From a virus, in IMG/VR virus record IMGVR_UViG_3300037140_000126, positions 60,955 through 124,954 of that record: a stretch of DNA of 64,000 bases; one strand, written 5' to 3'. Shown in pieces: positions 37,074 through 55,221 of the stretch; the first letter of the stretch is position 1; each line of letters starts with the position of its first letter. A model generated the notes under the pieces. That model ran no database searches, had not been told where the DNA came from, and saw only the letters and a list, made by a program, of their open reading frames with translations. A program made the translations under genes and the position numbers.

Positions 37074-37573
37074 AGTTTGAATTCCTTATTGCCATGCACT
37101 AAATAAGGAACGTCATCGGATTTGAACTGATGAACTGTTTGAATCCTATCAGGTGGAATGCCGCCCTGATACTTCAACCACTGTCCTTTGCTGCTCGCTT
37201 GTCCTAGAGGGTCGCTCTCTTTATCTTGTTTCCAGTCTTCGTCACCCCTTGAAAGTTTCAGAATAGAAACCTTCCCGCTTCCAGTTGCTTGGTTGAACGC
37301 CCAATCCATCTTTGCAGCCCATCGAAGTGCATCATGTGCATTGCTAAATGTATTTATCTCTCCTTTACCATACCTTGATTTATCACCTTGCTTAACCCAG
37401 TTAGAAGTCTGCATTGGCTTCAGTCCCTCTTTCTGGATTTTTGGGACAAGGTTAGTATGCGTAACGTGATATACACTTCCGCCAGAACTTTTTCTGCCAC
37501 ACGTTCCGGCAGCGGGATTACATCCAGACCCAGCACCACCAGCGTGAATCGAAATTGTAGTCTGAAGGTTCAC
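37070..37573 (-). CDS. Tagged ADP-ribosyltransferase-like protein
   Basis: 167 residues. Leader MNLQTTISIHA (1-11), linker GGAGSGCNPAAGTCGRK (12-28), then an enzyme-like domain starting VYHVTHTNLVPKIQKEGLKP. That H-x-T...I...G-L pattern is like the NAD-binding start of ART/RNA 2'-phosphotransferase-type folds. Phage ARTs such as T4 Alt are carried in the capsid and modify host proteins on entry. It overlaps both neighbours by four bases. Confidence 0.6.
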   Translation of the reverse strand: MNLQTTISIHAGGAGSGCNPAAGTCGRKSSGGSVYHVTHTNLVPKIQKEGLKPMQTSNWVKQGDKSRYGKGEINTFSNAHDALRWAAKMDWAFNQATGSGKVSILKLSRGDEDWKQDKESDPLGQASSKGQWLKYQGGIPPDRIQTVHQFKSDDVPYLVHGNKEFKL

Positions 37574-38172
37574 TTGTCCAGCACCTTTTCCAAGAATACA
37601 CGCTTGTTCTCGGACAGTCTATTTTTCTGGCCCATTACGTAAAACCCAAATGCGTCTGAGAAATCCTCATCAGAATTTTTCTCACTGTAGCGCCGAGCAA
37701 AACGAGCACCTTCCCGATGCGTTTCACTAGAAGTCTGCTTCGGCCAGCCAGAACGCTTTTCCTGATACGGTGGCGCTTGCCCTTCTGCGTGTCCTTCTTG
37801 CCAGCCACTCAGATGTTTCCATTCGTCTTGCTGCTTCACGGATAAACTCAGGAAAACTCCGTGCCCAAATTCGTGTGCGAGTGTCAAGTCTACGTGTGGC
37901 AGCTTTCTTCCCGGGCCATGGCCAAACTTTATGCGGCTGCGAAAATCACGCGGATTCAGATATACAACACCGCTTTCCTCATAGCGTCCGTGCTTCGCTC
38001 CCATCGTTCGGTCGGCCACAATCGTTTGCACGTGTTCCAGATAACGCGATGGAATCTCCGACAGCACTTGCCTGATCTGTTCTTGCTCCGCATTCGTAAA
38101 GCCTTCCAGCTTCACAGCAGCACGAGCGACGGGGTGCGACGCATACACCGAAATGGTAGTCTCAAGATTCAT
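37570..38172 (-). CDS. Leader-bearing zincin metallopeptidase-like protein
   Basis: 200 residues. Leader MNLETTISVYA without either linker. LAHEFGHGVF (99-108) holds the HExxH zinc motif. Upstream, SGVVYLNPRDF resembles the strand before the active site of small phage zincins. It is probably a metallopeptidase acting on host or virion proteins. It overlaps the next gene by ATGA. Confidence 0.65.
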   Translation of the reverse strand: MNLETTISVYASHPVARAAVKLEGFTNAEQEQIRQVLSEIPSRYLEHVQTIVADRTMGAKHGRYEESGVVYLNPRDFRSRIKFGHGPGRKLPHVDLTLAHEFGHGVFLSLSVKQQDEWKHLSGWQEGHAEGQAPPYQEKRSGWPKQTSSETHREGARFARRYSEKNSDEDFSDAFGFYVMGQKNRLSENKRVFLEKVLDK

Positions 38173-38315
38173 TTCTTGACCGGAACTCCGAACGTCACGT
38201 CCCCATTGGGCTTGATTATTTTGACCATCTCCGCTTGCGCTTTCTCGACGGGCGTGAAGTCTTTCTTCAAATAGACAACAATCGTTCCGTCTTTTTGCTT
38301 AATGATGCTGGGCAT
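38169..38315 (-). CDS. 48-residue basic protein
   Basis: MPSIIKQKDGTIVVYLKKDF, then a helix and a short beta end (GDVTFGVPVKK). It overlaps the gene before by 17 bases and the gene after by ATGA, so it is part of the coupled run. Small size and charge suggest an accessory or inhibitor protein for the adjacent peptidase, which is only inference. Confidence 0.6.
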   Translation of the reverse strand: MPSIIKQKDGTIVVYLKKDFTPVEKAQAEMVKIIKPNGDVTFGVPVKK

Positions 38316-38910
38316 AGTAGTCATTCACCCTCTTATACAAATCTTTCCACTGAGCGGTCCCGGGCAGCTTTCCCGTGTCGGACTGTAATCGCGCCATCTC
38401 GGCAAGCGTCTCATGCACACCCAATGCAATACCTGCTTCATGGCTATACACTTGACGCCAGCACTCTTCACTGTAGCCTGTTACCCCATCGTCCTTTGCC
38501 AAACCCATAAGGTTTTCCTGATTCATATTGTGGTCGTCCGCAAATGCCTTAAATTTTAGATGCTCTAATTCGTGGGCGACAACACCGCCGATTGGCATAT
38601 TCTGGGCATGTTCTAACCACACATCTGGGTGAAATTCAATAATTCCGGTGTTATTGTGGCTTACTGCAATTGGCTGCACTCCGAAATTGGAATCCACAGG
38701 GGCTTTATAGACAATTGTGGTCTTACTCTTGTCATAGCCCTGCTTTTCAATTTCCTTCAGGAATTCATCCACAGCAGCTTTTTCTTTTGTGGTACGAGTA
38801 GTGGTACTTGCAGGTCGGGCCTTCCTTCCACGGCCGCGCTCGTCCCATTCTTTCTTGACGCCCTCGGAAGTTCCGGTAGCGAAGATCGTAATTGTCGTTT
38901 CAAGGTTCAT
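38299..38910 (-). CDS. Tagged zincin peptidase-like protein
   Basis: 203 residues from the ATG at 38910 (AGAGG five bases upstream, ATGA overlap). Leader MNLETTITIFA, then class-B linker GTSEGVKKEWDERGRGRK (13-30), then a domain with VVAHELEHLKF (111-121), an HExxH zinc motif, and SHEAGIALGVHETLAE later. A second peptidase-like protein in the same series, with a sequence unlike the 37570-38172 product. Confidence 0.7.
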   Translation of the reverse strand: MNLETTITIFATGTSEGVKKEWDERGRGRKARPASTTTRTTKEKAAVDEFLKEIEKQGYDKSKTTIVYKAPVDSNFGVQPIAVSHNNTGIIEFHPDVWLEHAQNMPIGGVVAHELEHLKFKAFADDHNMNQENLMGLAKDDGVTGYSEECWRQVYSHEAGIALGVHETLAEMARLQSDTGKLPGTAQWKDLYKRVNDYYAQHH

Positions 38911-39326
38911 TCGAGCCTCTTGATATGTGCCATGGTCTTTTCCACATCGCGGTCCCAATGAACACCACGATCATCCACGTAGGCAATCGCCGGAGGCTTG
39001 TGGCTCGTCACACCATCTACTGGGATATTATTCTTAGCGAGAAATTTCACCACAACATCGTGATTATCCCGCGCCGTAAGGACGACCACGCGGTAGCCCT
39101 CGCTCTTCAGCCGCCGCACTAGCTCCGCTCCCTCAGGAATCATCTTTCTAGGCGTTGTCTCCCCGCCGCCTTTTTTGTGTTCTATAAGCGTGTTATCGAA
39201 ATCAACGCACACCAAACCACCCCGATATTTCGCGCCGCCTGCTCCCTTTGGACGACCACAGTTAGAACCCTCACACACTGAACCAGGCCCACCAGCATAA
39301 ATCGAGATTGTAACAGTGAGATTCAA
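38907..39326 (-). CDS. Tagged HAD-type phosphatase-like protein
   Basis: 139 residues. Leader MNLTVTISIYA, linker GGPGSVCEGSNCGRPK, then VCVDFDNTLIEH (39-50), the HAD nucleophile motif D-x-D-x-T. VVVLTARDNH supplies motif II and VDDRGVHW part of the acidic end. Like small polynucleotide or sugar phosphatases with a minimal cap. ATGA overlap downstream. Confidence 0.75.
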   Translation of the reverse strand: MNLTVTISIYAGGPGSVCEGSNCGRPKGAGGAKYRGGLVCVDFDNTLIEHKKGGGETTPRKMIPEGAELVRRLKSEGYRVVVLTARDNHDVVVKFLAKNNIPVDGVTSHKPPAIAYVDDRGVHWDRDVEKTMAHIKRLE

Positions 39327-39484
39327 TTGACCTTTTTCCGTTCCAGTTTCTTCTTCTCTTGCTCATACAGTTTCTCGAAATGCTGCACGTCTTTCTTTGT
39401 TGCAAACGGGTCTGGTGCATCATCTACCCACTTATGCCGCTTTTGCGCGTTGCTCGCCTTGGGCTGCTTTACCTCGATACTCAT
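39323..39484 (-). CDS. Small charged protein
   Basis: 53 residues from the ATG at 39484, the start best separated from the upstream gene. Lys/Glu-rich coiled coil (VQHFEKLYEQEKKKLERKK). It overlaps the end of the kinase gene by 53 bases. Possibly an antidote-sized partner of the zeta-like kinase, but there is no motif support. Confidence 0.5.
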   Translation of the reverse strand: MSIEVKQPKASNAQKRHKWVDDAPDPFATKKDVQHFEKLYEQEKKKLERKKVN

Positions 39485-40349
39485 TCCAACGTCCTCCGTC
39501 ATGAATTGTTTCAGGGCCCATCCCGTCACGGCTATAAACAAGTTTAGGTGCAGAACCTAGAGGCCCTGAATTATCGTAGAACTCTTTCCTACTTACTTCC
39601 GGCATATCCTTGAGGCGCATGAAATTTGCCGCTGCTCCGTAATGTGACTGTTCTATTATCCGGTCTGGCACGATACGCCCAAAATTGATTGGATCATTCG
39701 ATGACTGCGCCCGGAGATCGGCACGCTGTCTAGCTACGTCTAAAGGAACATCAAAAAACGCAGCTCTCACTGTATAGCCCTTATCGGTTAGTGACTTCGC
39801 CATAGAAGGACCACCGTTGCCGGAAGTTGTGGCGTCGTACACAATATCCAAACCTTTTACGGCGGCACGTGCTACCGCCATATGGGTTATGTCCGATGCC
39901 TCTTCATGGACTCTTGCGGAAGCGTTCTGTGGGTCAGTCTGTTTCAGTTGCGCGTATTCGGGCAGGGCTGTACGAATCTCATCAGAATCTATTCGCACAA
40001 TGTTAGTATTGCCCTTCATAAGCGCATCACTGCCGGAAGTTTTTCCAGAAGCCGTACCGCCGCCTAACAGAATCGCTATAGGAGCCCGTCCAACGGGTGC
40101 GGTCTTTCCTTTCAGTATCCGATCCACAACTCGGTCGTGAAATGCTCTGCGCTTCGGGTCCCACTCTCCTGATTTATTCTGCCACGCATAAATCGTGTGC
40201 TCACCTGGTTTCAAAGTTTTTACAGGGGCCCTGAGATTAGAGAAGTCCGCACCCTTTGGGATAGCGCTCTTAGGACGGCCACAATTAGGACCACGGCAAC
40301 CACTTCCAGGTCCGCCAGCAAAGATCGAAATTGTAGTCTGAAGGTTCAT
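39432..40349 (-). CDS. Tagged zeta toxin-like kinase
   Basis: 305 residues. Leader MNLQTTISIFA, linker GGPGSGCRGPNCGRPK, then a P-loop, LLGGGTASGKTSGS (94-107), and IDSDEIRTALPEY, the substrate-binding D-x-D-E-I/R typical of zeta/PezT kinases. ARVHEEASDI and YDATTSG also fit. Zeta toxins phosphorylate UDP-N-acetylglucosamine-type precursors. No epsilon-like antitoxin is recognised nearby. Confidence 0.75.
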   Translation of the reverse strand: MNLQTTISIFAGGPGSGCRGPNCGRPKSAIPKGADFSNLRAPVKTLKPGEHTIYAWQNKSGEWDPKRRAFHDRVVDRILKGKTAPVGRAPIAILLGGGTASGKTSGSDALMKGNTNIVRIDSDEIRTALPEYAQLKQTDPQNASARVHEEASDITHMAVARAAVKGLDIVYDATTSGNGGPSMAKSLTDKGYTVRAAFFDVPLDVARQRADLRAQSSNDPINFGRIVPDRIIEQSHYGAAANFMRLKDMPEVSRKEFYDNSGPLGSAPKLVYSRDGMGPETIHDGGRWNEYRGKAAQGEQRAKAA

Positions 40350-40358
40350 TGACCCGTC

Positions 40359-40610
40359 TTAGTAGAGCCCGAACAGATGCATGAACGCAATCACCACAAC
40401 TAAGACGAAGCACCAATAGAGAATCGTCACCCAAGGTTGACCGACACCAAGTGCCGGAAGAAGAAGTGATACAATTTTCCAGCAGATAGCGATCAGGATA
40501 ATGAGACAGATCAGCCCGATGAAAACACCGAACAGGCCGTCGATTCCTAAGAACCCGTAATGATGCACACCCAACGTCTGTAATGCGAGTGAAGCGAACA
40601 TGCTTTTCAT
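40359..40610 (-). CDS. Two-span membrane protein
   Basis: 83 residues with spans GVFIGLICLIILIAICWKIV and VTILYWCFVLVVVIAFMHL. AGGAGG lies before the ATG. Topology fits a class II holin-like or accessory protein, but no lysis genes are recognised next to it. Confidence 0.6.
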   Translation of the reverse strand: MKSMFASLALQTLGVHHYGFLGIDGLFGVFIGLICLIILIAICWKIVSLLLPALGVGQPWVTILYWCFVLVVVIAFMHLFGLY

Positions 40611-40629
40611 TGCTGCCTCCTTATAGTTT

Positions 40630-41376
40630 TCAAAACTGGCCTAGGTAACTACCCGTGTGGTGGGCTACCGCAGTGTTTGGAGGAATGCCTCCCAGCGTCG
40701 GATGCTTTTTCGTTTGCTGCAATCGGAAGCGCTGCGTGGCCTTGTCCGTACGCTTCGTGACATCCAAGAACGAATCGTCTTTTTCCATTGGATCATCAAC
40801 GGGGACACGCTTCGGATTCTTCAAACTTGGTGGGTGAAAGCTAGGTATAGGATCAATATGGGCCATCCCAACTGGCCCTTCCATTGCTCTCATTGCTTGC
40901 TCTAGCTTCGAGGCGGTAAGTTTCTGTGGTCTGAAATTCGGATGCCCAACACGTTGCTTGAACTCTGACATGGGCATCGCCGTCATCGAACCAAAATGTC
41001 TAGCATCGCCGCCATAGTTTTCGATTAGTGCTTTTTTTGCGGCATCAGCAGAATTCCATCCAAGAAGCACTTTGTGTTCGTCCGGCTTCTCAAACTCAGG
41101 GGCTTTCTTCGTTATCACGATATACGCGGTAGTAGCGTTTGCATCTGGGCCAATAAAGACATCCAGCGAATCCCCGTCAACCCCCGGTACGCCACGGATA
41201 TATCCGTAGTGTGCTTGTAGCTTCGTTCGCCAGCAAGTATGGGGCTTGCCCTTTTCACACTTCCCTTTTCTGACTGAGCCTTTCTTGTTCTCGATGGACA
41301 CAGGAAGCCCCTGAAACGAGGTATGCCCGTCGAGTTTGTGTTGCGCTTGCAATCCGCAAAGAGTCGATAAATTCAC
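40630..41376 (-). CDS. Inorganic pyrophosphatase-like phage domain protein
   Basis: 248 residues. The start MNLSTLCGLQAQHKLDG is weakly leader-like. YGYIRGVPGVDGDSLDVFIG (57-76), then DEHKVLLGW and a later MPMSEFKQRVGHP, match the InPase domain described in phage and polymorphic-toxin proteins. The metal-binding D-G-D-x-x-D-V is intact. It probably hydrolyses a phosphoanhydride. Confidence 0.7.
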   Translation of the reverse strand: MNLSTLCGLQAQHKLDGHTSFQGLPVSIENKKGSVRKGKCEKGKPHTCWRTKLQAHYGYIRGVPGVDGDSLDVFIGPDANATTAYIVITKKAPEFEKPDEHKVLLGWNSADAAKKALIENYGGDARHFGSMTAMPMSEFKQRVGHPNFRPQKLTASKLEQAMRAMEGPVGMAHIDPIPSFHPPSLKNPKRVPVDDPMEKDDSFLDVTKRTDKATQRFRLQQTKKHPTLGGIPPNTAVAHHTGSYLGQF

Positions 41377-41675
41377 TACCTTGGTTCTCCGTAGCCGTCG
41401 AATCCGCCTGATTGCGCTTCTTTGTCCTGTTTGCGTGGTTTAATTTCTTCCCTCATGGCTATTAGCTGCTTCGCCGGAATCCACGGGCATGATGCTTCAT
41501 GCCTTACATTTTCTTCGTTGTGTCCGCTGATAGCGCGGCAAAGAGCACATTTACGAACAAATGATTTAGTCAAACGGGATGGTGTTCCGGGCACAGGGGG
41601 AATTACAGATGTTTCATAAACTGGATCGGATTCGGCTAGAGCTTTAATAATATCGTGTGGTGTCATATGAATCAT
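41376..41675 (-). CDS. Cys/His small protein
   Basis: 99 residues. CALCRAISGHNEENVRHE and SCPW give C-x2-C-H...H-C zinc ligands near residue 45-65; the tail is basic. GAGG is six bases before the ATG. It is the first gene after the composite element at 41703-41760. Confidence 0.6.
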   Translation of the reverse strand: MIHMTPHDIIKALAESDPVYETSVIPPVPGTPSRLTKSFVRKCALCRAISGHNEENVRHEASCPWIPAKQLIAMREEIKPRKQDKEAQSGGFDGYGEPR

Positions 41676-41702
41676 TCAAATCCTCGTTTTTCGAGTCCTA
41701 GA

Positions 41703-41760
41703 CGTTCTCTAGGATGCACGCTAGACGCATTTCCCGTCGATTTCCCGATACTTACGGGCA
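41703..41760 (-). promoter_or_regulatory. Composite regulatory element, copy 2
   Basis: Core CGGGAAATCGACGGGAAA at 41730-41747 (minus), preceded by TGCCCGTAAGTAT and followed by CGTGCATCC and GAACG, with the same spacing as copy 1 at 18.0 kb. Confidence 0.55.
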
Positions 41761-41777
41761 ATCCTACTACTTAGAGA

Positions 41778-42419
41778 CTATCTGCCGCCAAAATTGCTTC
41801 CAAACGAGCCACTGCCGGGACGCTGTTGCATCTGCGGACGCTGGCCGCCACCCTGACCTGGACGTGACTGCTGGCCGCCACCGGGACGTTGACCATTACC
41901 GCCAGGGCGCTGCCCTCCACCGCCAAATCCGCCTCCGCCTCTTGACGCCCCAGCCTTCGGCGGTGCTTCTCCGATTGCGGCATGCCCCTTAGGCGTGAGA
42001 CTCCAGACATGACGCAATCCGCCTCCAGCACCGCCCAGCCTTGAACCTTGATGCTGCAAGTGGCCGGAACGAGCAAGTTGCTTCGCCTTCTCATGGCTTT
42101 CTTTGTTCGCGGTCACGAACGTACCAGTGCCGCCTGCAGCATTCTTCAGAAACGAGTGCAACTGTTTCGCTTGGTCCACAGGGTAGCGCTGCGGATCGGC
42201 GTTCACTTCATGCATCGGGAACTCGCCCTCGTTCTGTGCTTGCTCCTGCTGCATTTGCTGCTCTTGCTCTTGTTGCCCAATATCATCGGGACTCAGCATT
42301 GCCTGATCGTCTGTGTCATCCTGATTCATAGGCTGATTGTTATTCACAGGCGCGGGCTGTGCTGTCGGTTGCTGACGAATCTGTTCACGTGCGATGATGT
42401 CACGAATTGTTGAGTACAT
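41778..42419 (-). CDS. Gln/Gly-rich disordered protein with winged-helix-like middle
   Basis: 213 residues. The N-terminal third is Gln/Asp-rich, the middle (PQRYPVDQAKQLHSFLKNA to HVWSLTPKGHAAIG) looks like a small folded domain, and the C-terminus consists of GGGQRPGG-type repeats. Low-complexity tails of this sort can drive assembly or nucleic-acid binding. Function unknown. Confidence 0.55.
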   Translation of the reverse strand: MYSTIRDIIAREQIRQQPTAQPAPVNNNQPMNQDDTDDQAMLSPDDIGQQEQEQQMQQEQAQNEGEFPMHEVNADPQRYPVDQAKQLHSFLKNAAGGTGTFVTANKESHEKAKQLARSGHLQHQGSRLGGAGGGLRHVWSLTPKGHAAIGEAPPKAGASRGGGGFGGGGQRPGGNGQRPGGGQQSRPGQGGGQRPQMQQRPGSGSFGSNFGGR

Positions 42420-42441
42420 TTCATTCCTCCAAGTTTAATAG

Positions 42442-43287: not shown

Positions 43288-43291
43288 CGGA

Positions 43292-43852
43292 TTATTCTCC
43301 TGGTCCTTTGCCTAGTTTATGAACCGCCGACTCGTCTTTCTCTATTCTATAACCATTCCGGTAACCAACTCCGCCGCGCCAGTCTTGTACTTGAATCGTT
43401 ACGCGCCGACCTTTCACTTGCACGACTGTTCCACGACTTGTCAGACCATCCACGGTCACAGGATCACCTACTTTTATTTCCGATAAAACAACAGACGATC
43501 CTTGCAATCCCCTTTTTTCTGAAACTCTTAACTTAGCCCTAGCATTCTCACCATACCTAGAAGAATCGGAACGGCCGGATTCCTCATATACGCCATCTTT
43601 TAACCATCCACCACCAACCACCCTCTCAGGAGGAATTCCTAAATCATTTATAAGCATAACGTGGGTGCGTTGTTTTTCAGGCTGCCCATCAAAATAAATT
43701 CCCCCATCATCCGTTCTGACAGCAGCAAACTGACCTTCATCTGGAAGTTTAGGTTGTGGAGGCAAAGCACTTTGTTTACGGCCACAATTTGGCCCAGTAC
43801 ATCCACTCCCTGGTCCGCCAGCATGAATTGCAATAGTCATTTCCAAATTCAT
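43292..43852 (-). CDS. Tagged protein with KOW-like C-terminus
   Basis: 186 residues. Leader MNLEMTIAIHA, linker GGPGSGCTGPNCGRK (12-26), then an unassigned domain. Its C-terminal part, VGDPVTVDGLTSRGTVVQVK, looks like a small beta barrel. Shares the exact tag of the kinase and ART-like proteins. Confidence 0.6.
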   Translation of the reverse strand: MNLEMTIAIHAGGPGSGCTGPNCGRKQSALPPQPKLPDEGQFAAVRTDDGGIYFDGQPEKQRTHVMLINDLGIPPERVVGGGWLKDGVYEESGRSDSSRYGENARAKLRVSEKRGLQGSSVVLSEIKVGDPVTVDGLTSRGTVVQVKGRRVTIQVQDWRGGVGYRNGYRIEKDESAVHKLGKGPGE

Positions 43853-43853
43853 T

Positions 43854-44066
43854 TTAGTTTAGACCCATGCAATGCCACTCGAAGCACCTATCGTCCCACG
43901 AGAACTCCATGCACTCAGGATGCTCTTCTGCAAGTCCAAGCAACACATCCATGTTGGGAACCAGCAGGTCCTCGTCCCCGCATCCGCAAGCGCACATCTC
44001 TACGCTAATCCCATGCAGCATAACCCTTGGCTGCGCTTTCGTGAACGGAGCTACCCAGGCATCCAT
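43854..44066 (-). CDS. Small acidic Cys-rich protein
   Basis: 70 residues with CACGCGDE and CFEWHC as possible metal sites, plus a Glu/Asp-rich middle. It lies between two tagged genes. No family recognised. Confidence 0.55.
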   Translation of the reverse strand: MDAWVAPFTKAQPRVMLHGISVEMCACGCGDEDLLVPNMDVLLGLAEEHPECMEFSWDDRCFEWHCMGLN

Positions 44067-44069
44067 AAA

Positions 44070-44810
44070 TTAAATTACCTGATAACCTCGGAACGAATAA
44101 CCCGTCTGCCTGCGACGACCGCCAGGACGTTGCACGATAATCACAGACCGTTCTGCGGCAGCTGACAACGGCAGTCTGTGCCCCATCTTAGCGGCTTTGT
44201 TCTCATAGCCTGCCCCTTTATGGAAACCAGTATGACCACACCCACTACTATGACCCATACCGCCACGCTTCATTCCAAACGCAGCCATCTTTTTCGATTC
44301 GTTGCACGCTTCGCAGCCACCTTCCTTCTTTGCCTGCAACGGTGGCTGCCCGCCAGTGTACTGCGGATTCTGCGAGGTCGTATCTTGTCCGGCTTTCTTC
44401 GGCATCCGCAAACGATTATCGGGGGCAAATTCAGTCTGTGCACCGATAGGCTTTGCACCAAGAGCTTTTGCACGCTCGTCGATATGCGCCCTTGCAGCGG
44501 CTGGATTCTTGGCCCGACCGATAGCACGCTTGGCATTTGCCAAATCCCCACGATTCACGATAGGAAAGCCGCCACCAGGCATCGCATCACCAGACTTTGC
44601 AAGACTCTTACGCTTTCCTTCGGAGAACTCGCGGGCTTCCATCTCAATATGATGTGCAAGCAAATGATCTGTGCAGGCGTTCTGGTCCTTACATTTTTCA
44701 CCGCACATCTTGCACTTGTACCCGCCGCCTTCAATTTCTTGAAACGAAGCTTTCAGCGGGAATGCATTCGCAGAAGCTGCGATAAAACCAATCGTCTGTT
44801 GGATGTTCAT
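44070..44810 (-). CDS. Leader-like, C2H2-containing internal protein
   Basis: 246 residues. The start MNIQQTIGFIAASANAF is a diverged leader. CKMCGEKCKDQNACTDHLLAHH (broken: two CxxC, then a His pair) resembles a C2H2 finger. GGGFPIVNRGDLANAKRAIG then ARAHIDERAKALG is a short segment common in phage prohead-associated proteins. CEACNES and a Gly/His/Lys-rich tail follow. Confidence 0.6.
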   Translation of the reverse strand: MNIQQTIGFIAASANAFPLKASFQEIEGGGYKCKMCGEKCKDQNACTDHLLAHHIEMEAREFSEGKRKSLAKSGDAMPGGGFPIVNRGDLANAKRAIGRAKNPAAARAHIDERAKALGAKPIGAQTEFAPDNRLRMPKKAGQDTTSQNPQYTGGQPPLQAKKEGGCEACNESKKMAAFGMKRGGMGHSSGCGHTGFHKGAGYENKAAKMGHRLPLSAAAERSVIIVQRPGGRRRQTGYSFRGYQVI

Positions 44811-44823
44811 TTCTTCTCCTTAG

Positions 44824-45033: not shown

Positions 45034-45053
45034 GTTAGTTCTCCTTTTCAAAA

Positions 45054-45070: not shown

Positions 45071-46003
45071 TCATCCTTGTGGACTCCCGCCAAATGGGCC
45101 ATTTGGATAGGGCAGGGACTTTCTAAACGTACGCACTTGATTGTCTCCCGGTCTGCGGCGAATAAAATCCATAACTTCCGGCGTGTCTTCCATCGGGGTC
45201 GCTTGCTCGACATGAGTGACTACTTTCGTATAACGGTTTCCAGCCGAGGCACTTTCCGCTTCGTCTCTCGTCCTGAACGTGTGAATCACATTGCCGTGTC
45301 CATCAACGACGTAATATTTTAGCGCCGTCAGGCTAGAACCTTCAGACTGGCCACCAGAAGTTGCTTCCAACGAGGGCCTCACTACTGTCCTCTTCCCATT
45401 CTCGAAAAACTCAACACTTTGGATATAGCTCTTGTCAAGTTTTCCGCCATGAAGAATATTGTACTCACCTTTTGCTTCACCTACACTATCATGCCCACTC
45501 AACATCTCAGCGGGCACCCTAACTTTCACGACAGCTCCACGCCCGCCACCAGGAATTAGCACAACCTTGCCACCAACCCGCTTGAAAGAATCAACGCGTC
45601 CATAAGCACCAGCAGCGGTTTTCTTGTCACTTGAAAACGACGTAGTTTTAGGGTCTTCCGGGTCTGCTTTCGTGATGTTTCGTTTCGGATCAAATCCATG
45701 CTGTAGAATAGATTTTGCATTTTCCACCGAAGTGCCATGATAAAGAGTCCTATGACGACCACAATTCTGTCCCTTACAACCACTACCAGGACCACCGCCA
45801 AATACAGCCGTTTTCTGAAGAAACTCTTTTGTGTCGGGATCAACAGTTGCCGTTACACCGCCTTTATCAGGCCCACCTTTACGCATCTTCTCCCGCCCAG
45901 TTGTCCCGTCAGTCTCAGGATGCTGGCCGACAGGAGCGGTGGAGGAAGATGCATCTCCCCCACCGCCTCCAAAGGTGCAATAGATAGTTTCCAGCAGTCG
46001 CAC
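45071..46003 (-). CDS. ADP-ribosyltransferase-like protein with internal tag
   Basis: 310 residues. The N-terminus MRLLETIYCTFGGGG is a diverged leader. A second tag copy, FLQKTAVFGGGPGSGC then KGQNCGRHR (61-84), is internal. The enzyme domain follows: RTLYHGTSVENAKSILQHGF, an ART H-G-T motif. TTSFSSDKKTAAGAY adds the S-T-S-like strand. The C-terminal domain is DGHGNVIHTF-type. Starts at GTG after AAAGG. Confidence 0.7.
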   Translation of the reverse strand: MRLLETIYCTFGGGGGDASSSTAPVGQHPETDGTTGREKMRKGGPDKGGVTATVDPDTKEFLQKTAVFGGGPGSGCKGQNCGRHRTLYHGTSVENAKSILQHGFDPKRNITKADPEDPKTTSFSSDKKTAAGAYGRVDSFKRVGGKVVLIPGGGRGAVVKVRVPAEMLSGHDSVGEAKGEYNILHGGKLDKSYIQSVEFFENGKRTVVRPSLEATSGGQSEGSSLTALKYYVVDGHGNVIHTFRTRDEAESASAGNRYTKVVTHVEQATPMEDTPEVMDFIRRRPGDNQVRTFRKSLPYPNGPFGGSPQG

Positions 46004-46024: not shown

Positions 46025-46279
46025 CTACGCAGTGAGTGCAACAGATACGGTAACTGACGGGACTCCGGGAGCAGAAACGGTAACTGTCCCAGGCGACCCT
46101 ACTCGCAAGCCAGGAGCAGTCACGGCAAACGAAGCGTCGTTAGCCCCAGTGGTTGGCGTGACGCTAATTCCATCAGTGGCCTTAGCGGTCCAATTTCCTG
46201 AAGCCAACCCGGTCACTTTGACCGATTGCGCTGCAGGTGTTGCTTTCGTAAAGCTCAAACTAGATGGTGATACGTGCAT
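46025..46279 (-). CDS. BACON-like beta domain protein (1)
   Basis: 84 residues from the ATG at 46279. MHVSPSSLSFTKATPAAQSV, then a W-centred strand (NWTAKATDGISVTPTTG) and NDASFAVT, follow the BACON/immunoglobulin-like pattern. It is a tandem paralogue of the next protein. BACON domains occur in carbohydrate-binding and phage tail proteins. Confidence 0.65.
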   Translation of the reverse strand: MHVSPSSLSFTKATPAAQSVKVTGLASGNWTAKATDGISVTPTTGANDASFAVTAPGLRVGSPGTVTVSAPGVPSVTVSVALTA

Positions 46280-46333
46280 TGTGTTTCCTCCCTTTTCCAT
46301 TTTACTTCTACAACATTTTTATTCCAACAATGC

Positions 46334-46579
46334 CTACACCACTGAAACAGGTATCATAATCGGTGCATGTCCTGGTGCCGTGACAGTAATCGAACCCGCA
46401 CTCAGACCAGGAATTGTTACATTGAACGAATCATCGTTCACGCCATTCGGGGGAGCGACTACAATACCAGCAGTTGCCTTCGCACTCCACGCTACGATAT
46501 TCACTCCAGTGACCTTGACCGATTTCACTTCCGTACTGTTCTGCTTGCTAAAGCTTAAACTGTCTGGTGAAACGTGCAT
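46334..46579 (-). CDS. BACON-like beta domain protein (2)
   Basis: 81 residues, about half identical to its neighbour: MHVSPDSLSFSKQNSTEVKS, a W-centred strand (AWSAKATAGIVVAPPNG), then DDSFNVTIPGL. Each has its own ribosome site. Probably virion surface or spike accessory proteins. Confidence 0.65.
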   Translation of the reverse strand: MHVSPDSLSFSKQNSTEVKSVKVTGVNIVAWSAKATAGIVVAPPNGVNDDSFNVTIPGLSAGSITVTAPGHAPIMIPVSVV

Positions 46580-48732: not shown

Positions 48733-48750
48733 ATCAATCCTCCTTACAAG

Positions 48751-49707
48751 CTAAGCACTTACAGACTTTCCAAAGCGTTGCATTTCGGCGTCAACCATAC
48801 GCCGCACCAATTGCTCAAAATTAAGCGTCGGCTGCCATCCAAGCACTGACTTCGCCTTTGATGCATCCGCACGCAAATCATAAATTTCCTGGCTGCGCTG
48901 CATACGCTCGTCTACTTCAATTTTCCCGCTTACAATGCCAGCAGCATGACAGGCCGTATCCACAAACTCCTGAACGGAATGGGACTCGCCTGTACCAATC
49001 ACAAAGTCTTCGGGTGTCTCACGCTGTAGCATCATTACCATTGCTTTGACATAGTCTCCAGCGAATCCCCAATCTCTACGACTGTCGAGATTACCTAGCA
49101 TCAACACTTCCTCTGAACCAGTTGCCCATTGTGCAACATGCCGAGCAATCTTACGCGTAACCATCTCAAGTCCCCGACGTTCGCTCTCATGATTGAACAG
49201 CATCCCCGAGACAACAAAAAGCCCTCGTTTACGGTACAGAGCACACAAACGATGTGCTGCGGCCTTAGACGCACCGTATGGAGACATCGGCGCAAGCGGT
49301 GTTTCTTCATTGCACGCGCCATTGTGATTGCCGAACATTTCTGAACTGGATGCTTGGTAAACTCTCGTGTCCGGCTTCTCGCGCTCAACGATTTTCAAGA
49401 TACGTGCTAGGCCACCTGTGTTCACATCAAATGTCTCAGCAGGATATTCCCATGAAGTAGGCACGAAAACTTGCCCACCAAGATTATAAATCTCATCCGG
49501 CCATGATTTACGGATCGCCACTTCCAGAGAAGATTCGTCACGTAGGTCACCGTAAATATAATTTATATGAGTGAGAACGTCTGCCGGAAGCTGGCGACGG
49601 GTAAGGCCAACAACAGAGTAACCAAGTAACCGCAGATGCTCCGACAGGAACATTCCGTCTTGGCCGAGCGCCCCGGTGACGAGTGCTTTTTTCATCATCC
49701 GTTTCAT
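48751..49707 (-). CDS. gmd: GDP-mannose 4,6-dehydratase-like enzyme
   Basis: 318 residues. VTGALGQDGMFLSEHL (G-x-x-G-Q-D-G) at residue 10 is characteristic of GMD. QASSSEMFG and YGASKAAAH give the S/T...Y-x-x-x-K active site; FNHESERRG also fits GMD. It forms GDP-4-keto-6-deoxymannose for fucose/rhamnose-type sugars. Confidence 0.8.
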   Translation of the reverse strand: MKRMMKKALVTGALGQDGMFLSEHLRLLGYSVVGLTRRQLPADVLTHINYIYGDLRDESSLEVAIRKSWPDEIYNLGGQVFVPTSWEYPAETFDVNTGGLARILKIVEREKPDTRVYQASSSEMFGNHNGACNEETPLAPMSPYGASKAAAHRLCALYRKRGLFVVSGMLFNHESERRGLEMVTRKIARHVAQWATGSEEVLMLGNLDSRRDWGFAGDYVKAMVMMLQRETPEDFVIGTGESHSVQEFVDTACHAAGIVSGKIEVDERMQRSQEIYDLRADASKAKSVLGWQPTLNFEQLVRRMVDAEMQRFGKSVSA

Positions 49708-50000
49708 TGTGGTTCCTCTAATTCAATGATGTGTTTTGCGAGCAAAATATTCGTAGCTTTGATTGCAGCCGCACCTCCACCTGGACGGCCAAGGTCACAT
49801 ACACCAAGTTTCAAATAGATAATTTTGGCATAACTTTTCACTGTGCTTTCCACAATATTCATTTGGACAGCAATTTCCTTATAACACAAGGATTTCCCAA
49901 ACCTTAACTTCGCAAATTCCAACTCCCGATCCGTCAGATGAAATTCAACAGTAGATGTTGGTGGCCCCTTCGACAATCTCGGATGTCTCACGTAGCTCAC
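49704..50000 (-). CDS. LuxR-type helix-turn-helix protein
   Basis: 98 residues from a GTG overlapping the upstream stop (GTGA). HLTDRELEFAKLRFGKSLCY then KEIAVQMNIVESTVKSYAKI is a LuxR/GerE HTH: L-T-x-R-E and S-x-x-T-V-K. There is no receiver or ligand-binding domain. It probably regulates phage or host genes and is co-transcribed with the sugar genes. Confidence 0.7.
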   Translation of the reverse strand: MSYVRHPRLSKGPPTSTVEFHLTDRELEFAKLRFGKSLCYKEIAVQMNIVESTVKSYAKIIYLKLGVCDLGRPGGGAAAIKATNILLAKHIIELEEPQ

Positions 50001-51085
50001 GACGCATTCACCCCAATCGTTTTGCACGCTTTCGCCCATTGCTTCATGTTCCCAGACCAGCTACCCCAACCCTCCCTGCAAGCCCGATCATATCCAAATT
50101 CGTCAAGTTGATCCGCCAAGCACTCATAGGCTTCACAGTAAGTGCTGCCCGTTATTTTACACTCGTCTACGAGCCATGGCAGCATATTTTCAAGCAATTC
50201 GATGCACGGCAGTTCTAGTTTCACGTCCTTGAAATAATTGTGGCTGTTTCGTCTGTGCTCGACAATGGGCGTACCAATGCGCAAGTGCCCACCGAGATGC
50301 TTCATACATTTCTGCAAAAAATAACCTTGAAAAATATCGCCGTAGCGGTCCATTCCACCAGTCATCGGAAGAAAATAATACGCGGGGATCGCTTCGGCTC
50401 TAACCGCCGTGTTCTGTGAATTAACCGGGGCCCATGTATCTTTCGCCAATATCAAAGACTCTCTGCAACCATCCGACGATGCTGGATTGACAAGCCAAGT
50501 CATTGCATCGAGATCAGGATCGCGTGTCCACAATCCTTCATTCACATGCACATCGAAATTTCCAATTTCCCGCTTGAACGCAGAGTCTCCACCACGCGCA
50601 AAGTAGGGAAATCCACGCTGATAGACGCTTGCATCCATACTTAGCCAATCACATGGGTTGAACCACTTATCGCTCATAGAAATACATTCAGGACCACCAC
50701 GAAGACTCAACCCATGATTCTCAAAATAGTCATGTTCTTGCAGGCAGTAATTGTCATCGTCAATCGAAATGACAAAATCCACCCCAACATCCAGTGCCAT
50801 CAGGTACCCAATGTTGCGGCGGTTGTCTGAATTCATTGGAAACATATCATGTTTCAATCCTAAAATATTCAAGAAAACAGTCTGGTCCAAAATCCCTACG
50901 CACCTGACATTCAGGCCCTTGATGCTCAAATTCGTACACCTGTCAAACGCAGTGCCAGGCGTCTTCTTGTCAGAGATCATGAACACTTCGACCTCATCCA
51001 AATGCCCAAACTTCTTAAAATTCTCATAGTACCCGTCTAGGCATACTGGATCGTTGATCGAAGTCAGCACAAGTCCAGCTTTCAT
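49997..51085 (-). CDS. GT-A-like glycosyltransferase (RGP/STELLO-type)
   Basis: 362 residues. GYLMALDVGVDFVISIDDDN provides an acidic D-D-D metal site after a helix, and DMFPMNSDNRRNIGYL lies before it. The architecture resembles reversibly glycosylated polypeptide/STELLO-type proteins. It overlaps neighbouring genes by four bases. Substrate unknown. Confidence 0.55.
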   Translation of the reverse strand: MKAGLVLTSINDPVCLDGYYENFKKFGHLDEVEVFMISDKKTPGTAFDRCTNLSIKGLNVRCVGILDQTVFLNILGLKHDMFPMNSDNRRNIGYLMALDVGVDFVISIDDDNYCLQEHDYFENHGLSLRGGPECISMSDKWFNPCDWLSMDASVYQRGFPYFARGGDSAFKREIGNFDVHVNEGLWTRDPDLDAMTWLVNPASSDGCRESLILAKDTWAPVNSQNTAVRAEAIPAYYFLPMTGGMDRYGDIFQGYFLQKCMKHLGGHLRIGTPIVEHRRNSHNYFKDVKLELPCIELLENMLPWLVDECKITGSTYCEAYECLADQLDEFGYDRACREGWGSWSGNMKQWAKACKTIGVNAS

Positions 51086-51735
51086 CGTTTCACCAATAGC
51101 CCTACGCCGTTCATGTAGGGTAGTTGCAAAAACTGATAACCATTACTAGCCGCAAACGCCGCACAGATAGGCTCAAGCTCTTTCAGCCATGCCGTATCGT
51201 CAACAAACAATATCCGTGCTCCTAAATCGGCTAAGGCAACTAAATCTTTCCAGCAACCCTCAGGCGTATGATCGCCATCCACAAGACCAAAAACTTCTCT
51301 ACCTTGCAGAAACACTTTCTGAGAGTCGCCATAAACACGGAAAAATTCCCCGCTCGTTATATCGTAGTGCTCGAATTGCCCGGGATATTTCTCCTTAAGC
51401 CATCCGTAACCGCCATCCGCGAACCCGCCAGGGTCAACACTAATCAGCCTGCCTGGAGCAAGACGCTCAGGAATCTGCAATCTGACAAAGGCATCAAATG
51501 CGGCGTCCCCTTGTCTTGGATTCCCTTCTATTTCCAGTTTGTATTGCAGTGCATCGAGAATCACACAAGCCGACTTGCCCCACAAGTGGCCTGTCTGTAT
51601 CACAACTTCTGGACGAGTGAAACTAATCAGCGCATGCAGCAGCCAAGCAACTTCATCGAACATCCAGCCACAGTTGCCGGATTTCTTGGTAAGCTCACCC
51701 AGCGCCTTCACATTTTCAGCAAGTTCAGTTGTCAT
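51082..51735 (-). CDS. Class I methyltransferase-like protein
   Basis: 217 residues. VVIQTGHLWGKSACVILDAL is a variant of the SAM-binding strand-helix unit, LISVDPGG the acidic strand 2, and FGLVDGDHTPEGCWKDLVAL the D-G-D-H segment typical of Methyltransf_24/cephalosporin hydroxylase-like enzymes. Probably modifies a sugar. Confidence 0.6.
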   Translation of the reverse strand: MTTELAENVKALGELTKKSGNCGWMFDEVAWLLHALISFTRPEVVIQTGHLWGKSACVILDALQYKLEIEGNPRQGDAAFDAFVRLQIPERLAPGRLISVDPGGFADGGYGWLKEKYPGQFEHYDITSGEFFRVYGDSQKVFLQGREVFGLVDGDHTPEGCWKDLVALADLGARILFVDDTAWLKELEPICAAFAASNGYQFLQLPYMNGVGLLVKR

Positions 51736-52442
51736 GCCTCACCAATGAAATTCAACGCAAATTCTGGGACACCCTGTTGACAGTGAACACCGATCTGCCC
51801 CAGATGATCCATAAAACTCTTATCAGTCGCCCAACGATCACCTGGACGGAAATAAGCATGATGCAAGTCGAGTGTGTCCCCGCCGCTAGGCACGGGCCAC
51901 GTTGGGCCTTGCTTCCAGTGCACTCCCCAGGCTTGCCACTCTTCTCGCGTCCAGCAAGTACCATTGCCCGCCATGCTCGTCACAAGATGATCGTCACCAT
52001 CCCGCTGCAACGTCCTGTGATGACGTTCATGTGCGGAACGATACACAGACCAAGCTCTTGCATCGGGATGCCTTGTAACAAGTGCTTTCAGTTCTACAAA
52101 CCATTTTGGGTTATAGATCATGTCGTCTGCGAGTTCGATTACGTGCGTGCAGTCTGTTTCGTCAAAGAACTTTTGAACGATCCACGCTAAAGACGGATCA
52201 AGCCCAGCAACTTCTGGTGGCTGCAAAAATATTTTAACCGCGAATGACCACTCCGTTGCCGTATACAGTGCAGCATTTACAACTACGTCAGCGGAACCTT
52301 GATTCGCGGCAACCACAAATAAAGGAAGTGGACGCTCTTCTTTAGGCACATCTGTTCCACGCAAACTTGCATAGCTCTTCTCGGCAAAAACTTTGCGTTC
52401 CTCGGAATAAAGATACGTCGGGAGCACCATTCCAAACTTCAC
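51732..52442 (-). CDS. GT2-like glycosyltransferase
   Basis: 236 residues. VLPTYLYSEERK at the start and HVIELADDMIYNPKWFVEL (acidic D-D site near residue 103) are GT-A features, followed by a His/Arg-rich acceptor part. ATGA overlap with the methyltransferase gene. Confidence 0.6.
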   Translation of the reverse strand: MKFGMVLPTYLYSEERKVFAEKSYASLRGTDVPKEERPLPLFVVAANQGSADVVVNAALYTATEWSFAVKIFLQPPEVAGLDPSLAWIVQKFFDETDCTHVIELADDMIYNPKWFVELKALVTRHPDARAWSVYRSAHERHHRTLQRDGDDHLVTSMAGNGTCWTREEWQAWGVHWKQGPTWPVPSGGDTLDLHHAYFRPGDRWATDKSFMDHLGQIGVHCQQGVPEFALNFIGEA

Positions 52443-53710
52443 GATTGGCTCACAACAAATCTAGGATATGGCAGAGGCACAATCATCTGATTGCCTTTCG
52501 CAAGCCACTCTTTTTCACGTTGCTGGATCGCCCCAAGGAAATGCCACGGAAGTACGAGTCCACATTCGGCTTCCTTGCGAAATTCGTCCTCAGAGACTAT
52601 CGGCAGATTCGCACCGACCATATAGCGGCCAATCTTGCGGTCGTCACGCTCGGCGCAGGCAATCAGCCTGCCATCTGTTCGGAGGAGTTGCAGCAGCGTA
52701 GTGCCGCGTGTGGACGCGCCATACGCATAGACTTTCTTGTGCTTCACCGAGAGATCATCTAACATCTTTTGCAACGTACTGAGAACGCCAACTGTACGGC
52801 TCGTAAAACTAAAGTAAGACTCAAGGCTTGCCAACCCCATAGCATATTCACGCCCAAGGATCGCATGGACCGATGCGTCGGAATCCCGCTGTCCAGCATG
52901 GCACGCATAGACTCTAAGACTTCCACCATTCACGCTATTCGTCTCGGCTTTGTAAATCAATAGCCCAGCGGCTTGAAACACGGGGATCAACGTGGACAGG
53001 GAAAAATACGTCAGGTGCTCCTGAACTATGTTGTCAACTCCGTTTGACGACAACATAGTTGGCAGGTAGTTCATCTGCACAACGAACACGCCGTTTTTAT
53101 CGAGAATCTTGGCAACCTGCTTGCAAAATTCAACTGGGTTTTCTAGGTCGTAGAACATCGCACACGCAAATACAATCTTAGCTTTTCTAACGGGTATCGA
53201 ATGACGTGCAAATGCACGCTCGTAGGCTTCGCCGCTCCAGAATTCCGGTATGATGATTTCGGCGTACTTGCTCACCATCGCATACATATTCTTTGCTGGT
53301 TCACATGCGACCCTTACAGTCTCGGGAACAAACGACAACAAAGTTCCATCGTTCGCACCGATATCCACAACCACATCACCTCGCGCTAGGTGAACTTCAT
53401 ACAACGCTGAATTAACAATGCTGGCTAGTGCGGCACGCATCATTTCATTTACCCCTGAGCGGTAATGAAATTCCTCGTACAGATACTTAGGGTCGGTCGT
53501 ATGCATCAGCTGTACGAGCCAGCATTTTTCACACACAGCAAGCTGCAACGGAACCTTAGGCTTTGTCGGAGCATCACCCAACTTAGGAAACTCGACAATG
53601 TGAAGGGGGCCGGCATCCCAGAAGGTCATGAGGGCCGATGACCCACAGACTCGGCATACACTGATCTTAGTGTAACCAGCCGCTCTCTCGGTTGTGGGTT
53701 CGCTATGCAT
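52439..53710 (-). CDS. Sugar C-methyltransferase-like protein
   Basis: 423 residues from the ATG at 53710, overlapping the upstream stop. CRVCGSSALMTF and CEKCWLVQL form the N-terminal zinc site. VVDIGANDGTLLSF is the SAM motif, and NIVQEHLTYFSLSTL is the conserved centre. A C-terminal half with YGASTRGTTLLQ completes the TylC3/NovU three-domain layout. It adds a C-methyl group to dTDP- or GDP-linked keto sugars. Confidence 0.8.
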   Translation of the reverse strand: MHSEPTTERAAGYTKISVCRVCGSSALMTFWDAGPLHIVEFPKLGDAPTKPKVPLQLAVCEKCWLVQLMHTTDPKYLYEEFHYRSGVNEMMRAALASIVNSALYEVHLARGDVVVDIGANDGTLLSFVPETVRVACEPAKNMYAMVSKYAEIIIPEFWSGEAYERAFARHSIPVRKAKIVFACAMFYDLENPVEFCKQVAKILDKNGVFVVQMNYLPTMLSSNGVDNIVQEHLTYFSLSTLIPVFQAAGLLIYKAETNSVNGGSLRVYACHAGQRDSDASVHAILGREYAMGLASLESYFSFTSRTVGVLSTLQKMLDDLSVKHKKVYAYGASTRGTTLLQLLRTDGRLIACAERDDRKIGRYMVGANLPIVSEDEFRKEAECGLVLPWHFLGAIQQREKEWLAKGNQMIVPLPYPRFVVSQS

Positions 53711-54122
53711 ACATTTTCGTGTTGGCGCTAACGCCAAACATCTGATTCAGCTCGTTAACTAGCTGGGCCCGAACATCATTCAAATCAGCAATGCGCAACC
53801 CAAATTCACCTAGCTCCATTTTTTCACTATCAGTCAAGCTACCCGCTTTGCGGTAGACGCGAATCCGATCTTCCGCTTCCCACAGTTTTGCATTCACAAT
53901 GCCCAATCGTGCGTTCGCATTTGAAAACTGATCGTTGCTGAACGATGTGGCAGTGCGTTGATAACCCTGTATCTTTCTCTGCAAGTAGTTATCAAGCACA
54001 CGAAGTTCCTCTTCCCACGAAGCAGTAGGCACGTTCTTACGCATGCCCACGTTCAGTTTCAGTTGCAGGATCGACATGCGGTCAAGGACCTCACCGATTT
54101 CAGGTTCAAGCAAACCAGACAT
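53703..54122 (-). CDS. DUF6165-like helical protein
   Basis: 139 residues, mostly helical. LLEPEIGEVLDRMSILQLKL resembles a short protein type often found in polysaccharide clusters (I/V-x-x-G-E-x-x-D-K-x-S/T-I-L). The C-terminal helices contain LRIADLNDVRAQLV. It is the first gene of the coupled sugar run. Confidence 0.55.
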   Translation of the reverse strand: MSGLLEPEIGEVLDRMSILQLKLNVGMRKNVPTASWEEELRVLDNYLQRKIQGYQRTATSFSNDQFSNANARLGIVNAKLWEAEDRIRVYRKAGSLTDSEKMELGEFGLRIADLNDVRAQLVNELNQMFGVSANTKMYA

Positions 54123-54125
54123 AAA

Positions 54126-54641
54126 TCACACGACCTTTCTTAAAGACTTTTGCACAACCATCCGAGAGACAAGCTGAAGTACCTCTTCCTTGTCAATTTG
54201 CGCTAGCCGCACTTCAATGAGCATCCGTGCGGCGAATAAAGTTCCTACACGTTCAGCTGTCGGTGCTTCGAACAGCCAATGCAACGGTATGCCCAAACCA
54301 TCGGCAAGCTTCTCGACAAATGCAAGCCGACCATATAATGGCCCTTTAAGTTCAAGCTCTTTAACTGTTGTCCGGTTGCAGCGCAGCCTATTGCAAAGTT
54401 CATATTGGGTAAGGAACGATGCAATCCTATACGTGCGCAACGCAGCGGCGATGTCTTTGCGCCAGTCACGGCGCTCTCTTACACGTGGCGTTGGCTCAAT
54501 AGGCTGTGCTGTCTCTACCGCAACAAGGCTTGGATTCGTCATAGTTCTACGACACCTGCGGCAAACGCTTGCCGCATACTGAACAAGTCCACAAATGCTA
54601 CATCGCAATACAACACGTTGTTTGTCGCTCACATCTTGCAT
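54126..54641 (-). CDS. Zinc-ribbon XRE-type regulator
   Basis: 171 residues. CSICGLVQYAASVCRRC (about 14-30) is a zinc ribbon. A central XRE-like HTH, QYELCNRLRCNRTTVKELEL, follows, then GIPLHWLFEAP, a usual ending of that domain. A candidate regulator for the promoter family. The ATG overlaps a TCCTGTATCATG site, so the true start could be the GTG nine bases further in. Confidence 0.6.
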   Translation of the reverse strand: MQDVSDKQRVVLRCSICGLVQYAASVCRRCRRTMTNPSLVAVETAQPIEPTPRVRERRDWRKDIAAALRTYRIASFLTQYELCNRLRCNRTTVKELELKGPLYGRLAFVEKLADGLGIPLHWLFEAPTAERVGTLFAARMLIEVRLAQIDKEEVLQLVSRMVVQKSLRKVV

Positions 54642-54650
54642 GATACAGGA
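54639..54650 (-). promoter_or_regulatory. TCCTGTATCATG site (copy 3 of 3)
   Basis: Exact 12-base repeat overlapping the regulator's ATG. TTGGTG lies 16 bases upstream of TATCAT, a possible -35. If it is a promoter the mRNA would be nearly leaderless. Confidence 0.4.
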
Positions 54651-54675
54651 TCACACTATTTCACCAACTAACTAA

Positions 54676-55221
54676 TTACTTTGGCACGGTCCCCACACGC
54701 TCGTTAAATCTGCTTGCCATTCTTTCTAGCCTAGAAACCCTTTCCTGCTGTTCTTTTTCTGGTACACCAGACTGGTCCATTTTCCGCTCGGCTTCGGCCA
54801 CCCAATGGTATAGTCCAGTGTAATCAATATGCATAGCGTTCACAGCATTATCCACATCCGCAACGCCAGCATTAGAACTCATTAACCGTTGATCCAAAAT
54901 CTGGTACTGCACATCCCTCTTTCTGGCGGTTTTTCCACGGTCCCCAGGATCACCAAAATAACCCTTATTCTCTTTAACCAGATCGTTCAAGAGTAGATGT
55001 GCGGACATTTTTGCATCCAACAATGTCTCTTCATCGGGGTCCTTCCCTTTGTCAATTGCTTCGTACATTTTATTGATAGACTCCATAAGACGTTCTTCCC
55101 TGACTTTCTCTTTGTCGCTAGGTGCTGATACATTCCTTCCCCGGCCACGAGTGTCCCAAGATTTCTCAACACCTTCCGAGGTGCCGGAAGCAAAAATCGA
55201 GATTGTAGTTTGAAGATTCAT
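54676..55221 (-). CDS. Tagged helical protein
   Basis: 181 residues from the ATG at 55221 (AAGGACC upstream). Leader MNLQTTISIFA, then GTSEGVEKSWDTRGRGRN (13-30, class-B linker), then an all-helical charged body (SINKMYEAIDKGKDPDEETL). The body has no recognised fold. Encoded 13 kb from the main tagged run, showing the tag is not confined to one operon. Confidence 0.65.
   Translation of the reverse strand: MNLQTTISIFASGTSEGVEKSWDTRGRGRNVSAPSDKEKVREERLMESINKMYEAIDKGKDPDEETLLDAKMSAHLLLNDLVKENKGYFGDPGDRGKTARKRDVQYQILDQRLMSSNAGVADVDNAVNAMHIDYTGLYHWVAEAERKMDQSGVPEKEQQERVSRLERMASRFNERVGTVPK

What the first reader, a model, noticed from the sequence alone, without database searches (positions are those of the whole stretch)
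37523..55221. Two alternative linkers follow the leader: GGPGSGCxGPNCGR and GTSEGVxKxWDxRGRGRK
Class A (two Cys, one GR) follows the leader at 37070, 38907, 39432 and 43292. Class B (Trp, RGRGRK) follows at 38299 and 54676, and a degenerate form is at 4175. One protein (37570) has neither. Separate conservation of leader and linker suggests two modules with different partners, for example one for capsid entry and one for cleavage or metal/nucleic-acid binding. Gly-rich GGPGSG-type linkers occur in other phage head proteins as I recall, which would fit.
Basis: partly seen in the sequence, partly recalled or inferred. Interest (0 to 1): 0.8.

Follow-up and report, generated by a model that had tools for sequence, protein, structure and literature searches.

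The report
Cut-site tags on phage-packaged effector proteins
A virus of bacteria seems to mark many different weapon-like proteins with the same short front tag and cut site that its own shell-building enzyme uses on the virus coat, which would let it load them into the particle, trim them and inject them with its DNA; the evidence so far is comparative sequence only.

Summary
The leader, both linkers and their coordinates are real. The two 'alternative linkers' are one element: a leader ending in [I/L/V]-x-A, then an interchangeable Gly-rich spacer (GGPGSGC..CGR, xGTSEGV..WDxRGRG, or GGPGSGRH). In related phages the same junctions also separate domains inside polyproteins. Upstream of the spacer only P3 (hydrophobic, 45/46) and P1 (Ala, 38/46) are conserved, as at a protease site. 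The phage encodes a protease fused to its scaffold, predicted to share the fold of T4 gp21 and herpesvirus assemblin. [quoted passage not shown] In other phage lineages the residue before GGPGSG is lineage-constant (Lys, Phe or Glu). Tagged domains (Zeta kinase, InPase, and probably ART, metallopeptidases, HAD) are those of polyvalent proteins. Best reading: T4-like capsid-targeting propeptides and cargo polyproteins cut by the prohead protease, with equivalent spacer classes rather than different partners. Cleavage and packaging are inferred, not observed.

The parts
37541..37573 (-). leader MNLQTTISIHA (GTG start) of 37070-37573
37493..37540 (-). class A spacer GGAGSGCNPAAGTCGR
38140..38172 (-). 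leader MNLETTISVYA of 37570-38172 (HEFGH metallopeptidase-like), no spacer, [V]-x-A before S
38878..38910 (-). leader MNLETTITIFA of 38299-38910 (HELEH, aspzincin-like)
38821..38877 (-). class B spacer TGTSEGVKKEWDERGRGRK
39294..39326 (-). leader MNLTVTISIYA (TTG start) of 38907-39326 (HAD-like)
39252..39293 (-). class A spacer GGPGSVCEGSNCGR
40317..40349 (-). leader MNLQTTISIFA of 39432-40349 (Zeta toxin family kinase)
40275..40316 (-). class A spacer GGPGSGCRGPNCGR
41344..41376 (-). leader-like MNLSTLCGLQA of InPase protein 40630-41376; InPase orthologs in other phages carry clearer leaders
43820..43852 (-). leader MNLEMTIAIHA of 43292-43852 (weak match to a MutS2/Smr-associated SH3 domain)
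43778..43819 (-). class A spacer GGPGSGCTGPNCGR
44778..44810 (-). weak leader MNIQQTIGFIA of 44070-44810
   Evidence: score 8.0
45755..45796 (-). class A spacer GGPGSGCKGQNCGR inside 45071-46003, before an ART-like domain, no leader
55189..55221 (-). leader MNLQTTISIFA of 54676-55221
55132..55188 (-). class B spacer SGTSEGVEKSWDTRGRGRN
4604..4660 (-). class B spacer YGTAEGVQKAWDSRGRGRK after GYSAIHA in 4175-4726, next to the head-tail adaptor
6585..8129 (-). protease-scaffold fusion: N-terminal predicted clan SH protease (H85, S130 conserved), C-terminal acidic/coiled scaffold rich in [ILVM]-x-A
5551..6540 (-). major capsid protein (HK97-type fold matches)
6490..6498 (-). predicted capsid propeptide site V-Q-A (residues 15-17) before AADYLAPGAIE
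8213..11392 (-). portal, interrupted by a probable intein
4748..5536 (-). head-tail adaptor (no such site at its N-terminus; negative control)

Best explanation
The 11-residue leader is a capsid-targeting propeptide, working like the CTS of T4 internal proteins. [quoted passage not shown] The Gly-rich element after the cut (class A, B or RH) becomes a flexible new N-terminus and can be any of several equivalent spacers. In relatives the same [ILV]-x-A/spacer junction is repeated between domains, so their large effector proteins are virion polyproteins that the prohead protease would split into single effectors, delivered with the DNA. Shown by computation: the shared leader, the P3/P1 signature, the predicted protease fold, the same motif in scaffold and capsid protein, lineage-constant P1. 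Inferred: cleavage itself, packaging, injection, effector targets.
For: (1) 46 contexts (nearly all internal): P1=A 38, P3=[ILVMF] 45, nominal p 4e-34 and 6e-29; other upstream positions at or near background; independent loci 7/8 and 8/8. Same for classes A, RH and B. (2) Scaffold of 18-19 distinct orthologs: 7 conserved hydrophobic-x-A columns at spacing 2, all at or beyond the end of the protease domain, against 1-4 at other spacings, most of those within the protease fold; 313 pairs against 131-220; other proteins of this phage flat (542 against 543-575); T4 control recovers its published xE motif (34 against 12-26) and shows no Ala peak. (3) Capsid protein: N-terminus variable in length and sequence, conserved block starts at [IVLFM]-x-A-[AS]-A in 20 of 20 readable distinct orthologs. 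(4) Predicted protease fold: T4 gp21 Z 11.0, herpes assemblins Z 8-10.7, next fold 7.1. PrV assemblin's likely R-site is YLQA-T (PMC4498786). (5) P1 constant within other phages: K 27/27, K 19/19, F 7/7, F 6/6, E 5/5; 115 of 124 modal against at most 75 in 5000 shuffles; one K-lineage candidate scaffold has hydrophobic at -2 for 12/19 Lys, p 7e-4, Ala not enriched. (6) The nearest annotated relative of the Zeta domain is in cyanophage P-SS2 ORF 030, a virion protein with 96.5 peptides on average.
Against: No mass spectrum or cut product for any phage of this lineage. Contexts are related by descent, so p-values are nominal. P1 is not always Ala (C, S, G, F in about 15%). Not every tagged protein has the leader (45071, 4175, most in G008). 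Co-variation outside the Ala lineage rests mainly on one Lys-lineage candidate scaffold; the Phe-lineage scaffold shows no Phe enrichment, and in the Phe and Glu lineages P3 is often not hydrophobic. P-SS2 ORF 030 itself lacks these spacers, so it supports virion location of the domain, not the tag.
Confidence: 0.75

Rival explanations
1. The leader-spacer is a mobile cassette or neutral flexible linker copied from gene to gene; IxA is part of the copied cassette and no protease reads it.
For: A 43-base, 84% identical repeat covers the leader and start of the spacer of two genes, so copying may occur. P1 could be constant within a genome by copying.
Against: Only P3 and P1 are conserved upstream in polyproteins, not neighbouring residues. 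The same motif marks the scaffold and the capsid protein, which lack the spacer. Codons vary synonymously.
Confidence: 0.1
2. The leader only docks cargo to scaffold or capsid and stays on; the spacer just separates it from the folded domain.
For: Leader of fixed length before many domains; spacers look flexible.
Against: The motif recurs between domains of polyproteins, far from any leader, and at the capsid protein N-terminus.
Confidence: 0.07
3. Processing is done by the embedded metallopeptidase domains, as proposed for polyvalent proteins, not by the prohead protease.
For: HExxH peptidases are among the tagged proteins; the 2017 paper proposes embedded MPTases as the processing agent (PMC5512222).
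Against: The motif is shared with the scaffold and capsid protein, the usual prohead protease substrates; several tagged polyproteins show no recognised peptidase domain.
Confidence: 0.06
4. The leader is a Sec signal peptide cut after A.
For: P1 Ala.
Against: No positive n-region, no long hydrophobic stretch, large Ile/Leu at P3 where small residues are expected, and the same site inside polyproteins.
Confidence: 0.02

Closest known systems
T4 internal proteins and Alt with the capsid targeting sequence, cut by gp21
   Same: Short N-terminal propeptide (10-19 residues for the IPs; first 10 of IPIII suffice) shared by otherwise unrelated cargo, removed by a clan SH prohead protease (PMC9026906)
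   Different: P1 is Ala, not Glu; a Gly-rich spacer follows; many enzymatic domains; the same site recurs inside polyproteins; protease is fused to the scaffold
Polyvalent proteins of phages (Iyer et al. 2017)
   Same: Same kind of domain set: ART, Zeta-type kinase, InPase, metallopeptidase, ParB-like; predicted virion delivery
   Different: In the window the domains are separate small genes, each with a leader; processing is attributed there to embedded metallopeptidases, here to the prohead protease
Herpesvirus assemblin (UL26-type) and assembly protein
   Same: Predicted fold, protease fused to scaffold, hydrophobic-x-Ala cut sites, a site at the protease-scaffold border
   Different: A phage; additionally acts (inferred) on effector cargo
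SPN3US/phiKZ head and ejection proteins with prohead-protease propeptides
   Same: Cargo with N-terminal propeptides cut by the prohead protease (PMC10052503)
   Different: Motif AxE or S/A-x-E; longer propeptides; no common spacer reported in the passages read

Membership tests
T4-type capsid targeting sequence | short N-terminal leader shared by unrelated proteins | tested here: met
T4-type capsid targeting sequence | cleavage motif with P1 Glu | tested here: not met
   P1 Ala; T4 control shows Glu
T4-type capsid targeting sequence | leader sufficient for packaging and removed by the prohead protease | not testable with these tools
   needs virions or reporter fusions
T4-type capsid targeting sequence | sequence homology of the leader to the T4 CTS | not tested
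   IP genes were not in the T4 stretch fetched
Clan SH proteases (assemblin / gp21 / prohead protease) | fold | tested here: met
   predicted model, Z 11.0 to 5jbl, 8-10.7 to assemblins, next fold 7.1
Clan SH proteases (assemblin / gp21 / prohead protease) | catalytic His and Ser | tested here: met
   H85 and S130 invariant in 7 aligned orthologs and retained in the wider set; geometry not measured
Clan SH proteases (assemblin / gp21 / prohead protease) | third catalytic residue | tested here: inconclusive
   not assigned from the alignment
Pfam Peptidase_S78_2 (XkdF type) | profile match | tested here: not met
   no match in G000 or G009; no Pfam protease match for 6585
Polyvalent proteins | domain repertoire (ART, Zeta, InPase, MPTase) | tested here: met
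   in the window only Zeta, AAA_33 and InPase pass the Pfam cut-off, ART and MPTase matches are below it
Polyvalent proteins | several domains in one polypeptide | tested here: not met
   separate genes in the window; met in relative G002

The most novel reading that the evidence does not exclude
Many unrelated tailed phages load effectors by a common plan: a lineage-specific leader, a cut site tuned to that phage's own prohead protease, and an interchangeable GGPGSG-type spacer, so that polyvalent proteins are virion polyproteins cut by the capsid protease, and cargo can be recognised from sequence by matching P1 to the scaffold.
Probability: 0.5. Interest if true: 0.85.

Novelty: new variant of a known kind. 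Interest (0 to 1): 0.74.

Why it matters
It would turn a recurring unexplained motif in phage proteins into a readable tag for virion-delivered effectors, and would give a testable rule linking cargo, scaffold, capsid protein and protease within one phage. It would also reassign the processing of at least some polyvalent proteins from embedded metallopeptidases to the prohead protease.

Tried and rejected
tblastn of the short leader-linker against 50,697 phage records gave one hit, on the strand opposite to the annotated gene, taken as chance; class B, RH and a composite K-type query gave none. The protease-scaffold and capsid protein have no relative there. Class B pattern in genome contigs: five stretches, the four that could be read in frame are unrelated proteins. 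PF04586 and PF05065 found few head genes in the other lineages. The protease HMM did not find the other lineages' proteases. XkdF-type proteases of G020, G021, G026 and G027 show no clear Lys enrichment at spacing 2. No Phe enrichment in the Phe-lineage scaffold; a weak Glu excess in G019. The capsid protein model is low confidence overall. A literature search for GGPGSG found nothing relevant in the held library. A Sec signal peptide was rejected on sequence grounds.

Full report
On the minus strand, seven proteins begin with a leader of the form M-N-L-x-x-T-I-x-[IV]-[FHY]-A. Four continue with class A, two with class B and one with neither. Two further linkers lack the leader: class B at 4175 and class A inside 45071. 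The window lies in a 124,954-base virus record.

The tagged proteins carry, by Pfam match, a Zeta family kinase (E 1e-30) and an InPase domain (2e-34, behind a weaker leader). Weaker matches, below the curated cut-offs, suggest two HExxH metallopeptidases, a HAD phosphatase and an ART/PARP domain. The match of 37570 to an anthrax lethal factor profile is weak and is read here only as a generic metallopeptidase. This is the kind of domain set described for polyvalent proteins, which are predicted to be delivered with phage DNA (PMC5512222).

Relatives change the picture. Scans of viral contigs by leader, class A, class B and RH patterns brought in several phages of 117-132 kb and fragments. In G002 (55.5 kb) two proteins of 1226 and 1066 residues carry A, RH and B spacers between domains, among them Zeta and, by weaker evidence or by eye, ART-like, ParB-like and metallopeptidase domains. 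In G015 a 686-residue protein mixes RK/RH and B spacers. The Zeta domain lies behind class A in the window and behind class B in G002. The spacers are therefore interchangeable and their starts align column by column: x-G-[PT]-[GS]-[SE]-G.

What is conserved before the spacer is only two residues. In 46 contexts from 11 contigs P1 is Ala in 38 and P3 is hydrophobic in 45; P2 and P4-P10 are at or near background. A few of these 46 are leaders with an in-frame upstream extension; the rest are internal. Thirteen N-terminal contexts agree (P1 A 11, C 2; P3 13/13). A separate set of loci, fetched by the protease and not by the linker, gives 7/8 and 8/8. These contexts are partly related by descent, so p-values are nominal.

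The phage's own head genes show the same motif. Gene 6585-8129 encodes a conserved N-terminal domain fused to an acidic, coiled, poorly conserved region. The domain was modelled from seven orthologs (mean pLDDT 71.5). Its closest solved folds are T4 gp21 (Z 11.0) and herpesvirus assemblins (Z 8-10.7), ahead of the next fold at 7.1. His85 and Ser130 are invariant in those seven. In the scaffold part, hydrophobic residues are enriched exactly two positions before Ala (313 against 131-220 at other spacings), while 48 other proteins of the phage are flat. Seven such columns are conserved, against 1-4 at other spacings. Applied to the T4 core proteins, the same test finds Glu at spacing 2 and no Ala peak, which agrees with cleavage after Glu in T4 (PMC9026906).

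Gene 5551-6540 is the major capsid protein: synteny, one ortholog matching phrog_10 'major head protein' and PF05065, and fold matches to encapsulins and phage capsids from a low-confidence model. Its N-terminus differs in length and sequence among orthologs, and the conserved block begins at [IVLFM]-x-A-[AS]-A in all of the 20 distinct orthologs whose N-terminus could be read. The adaptor next door shows no such pattern.

Other lineages supply a natural experiment. In phages found by the RH spacer alone, with no condition on P1, the residue before GGPGSG is Lys in G021 (27/27), G020 (19/19), G018, G022, G023, G026 and G027, Phe in G024 and G025 (6/6 and 7/7), and Glu in G019 (5/5). Modal P1 accounts for 115 of 124 contexts, against at most 75 in 5000 shuffles. 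Several of these lineages have their own recurrent leaders, such as M..NPFST..LLP..S.YPVxK. In G021 a candidate scaffold has hydrophobic at -2 for 12 of 19 Lys (p 7e-4) and no Ala enrichment. The G026 capsid protein has L-R-K before its likely mature start. The XkdF-type proteases of these phages and the Phe-lineage scaffold show no such signal, so co-variation outside the Ala lineage is suggestive only.

An experimental hint on location: the closest annotated relative of the window's Zeta domain is in cyanophage P-SS2, in ORF 030, which averaged 96.5 peptides in purified virions (PMC2784084). That protein fuses the Zeta domain to what look like MuF and ART domains (read from sequence) and lacks these spacers.

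Conclusion. The leader most likely works like the T4 capsid targeting sequence, and the junction is most likely a prohead protease site with a flexible spacer behind it. Every step after the sequence signature is inferred. By the membership tests it is not a T4 CTS in the strict sense (P1 is Ala), and the window genes are not polyvalent proteins in the strict sense (one domain each), though relatives carry the fused form.

Noticed in passing
8213-11392: Portal of 1059 residues against 632 in L009; an insertion of about 400 residues with a LAGLIDADG_3 match suggests an intein.
   Followed up: partly
27378-27986: GroES-like co-chaperonin match (phrog_3188).
   Followed up: no
33947-35461 and 48751-53737: Sugar-nucleotide, epimerase, glycosyltransferase-like and methyltransferase-like genes amid the late region; similar clusters stand next to a leader gene in L010/L017.
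   Followed up: no
46025-46300 and 46334-46579: Two tandem small paralogs, MHVSP.SLSF.., resembling bacterial Ig-like domains.
   Followed up: no
40359-40610: 83-residue membrane protein between effector genes, with a counterpart between the two polyproteins of G002 (L011:8494-8745).
   Followed up: no
55694-56845: Protein with MNIQQALAMS start; relatives in other phages start with a different recurrent N-terminus (roughly M..LQAA.LASLR), perhaps a second leader type.
   Followed up: partly
L009:9906-10220, L115:4291, L119:13869: Leader followed by a recurrent module (YCVKSED.SKNLGCKPSK..RLRQVEYFKH) ahead of a spacer.
   Followed up: no
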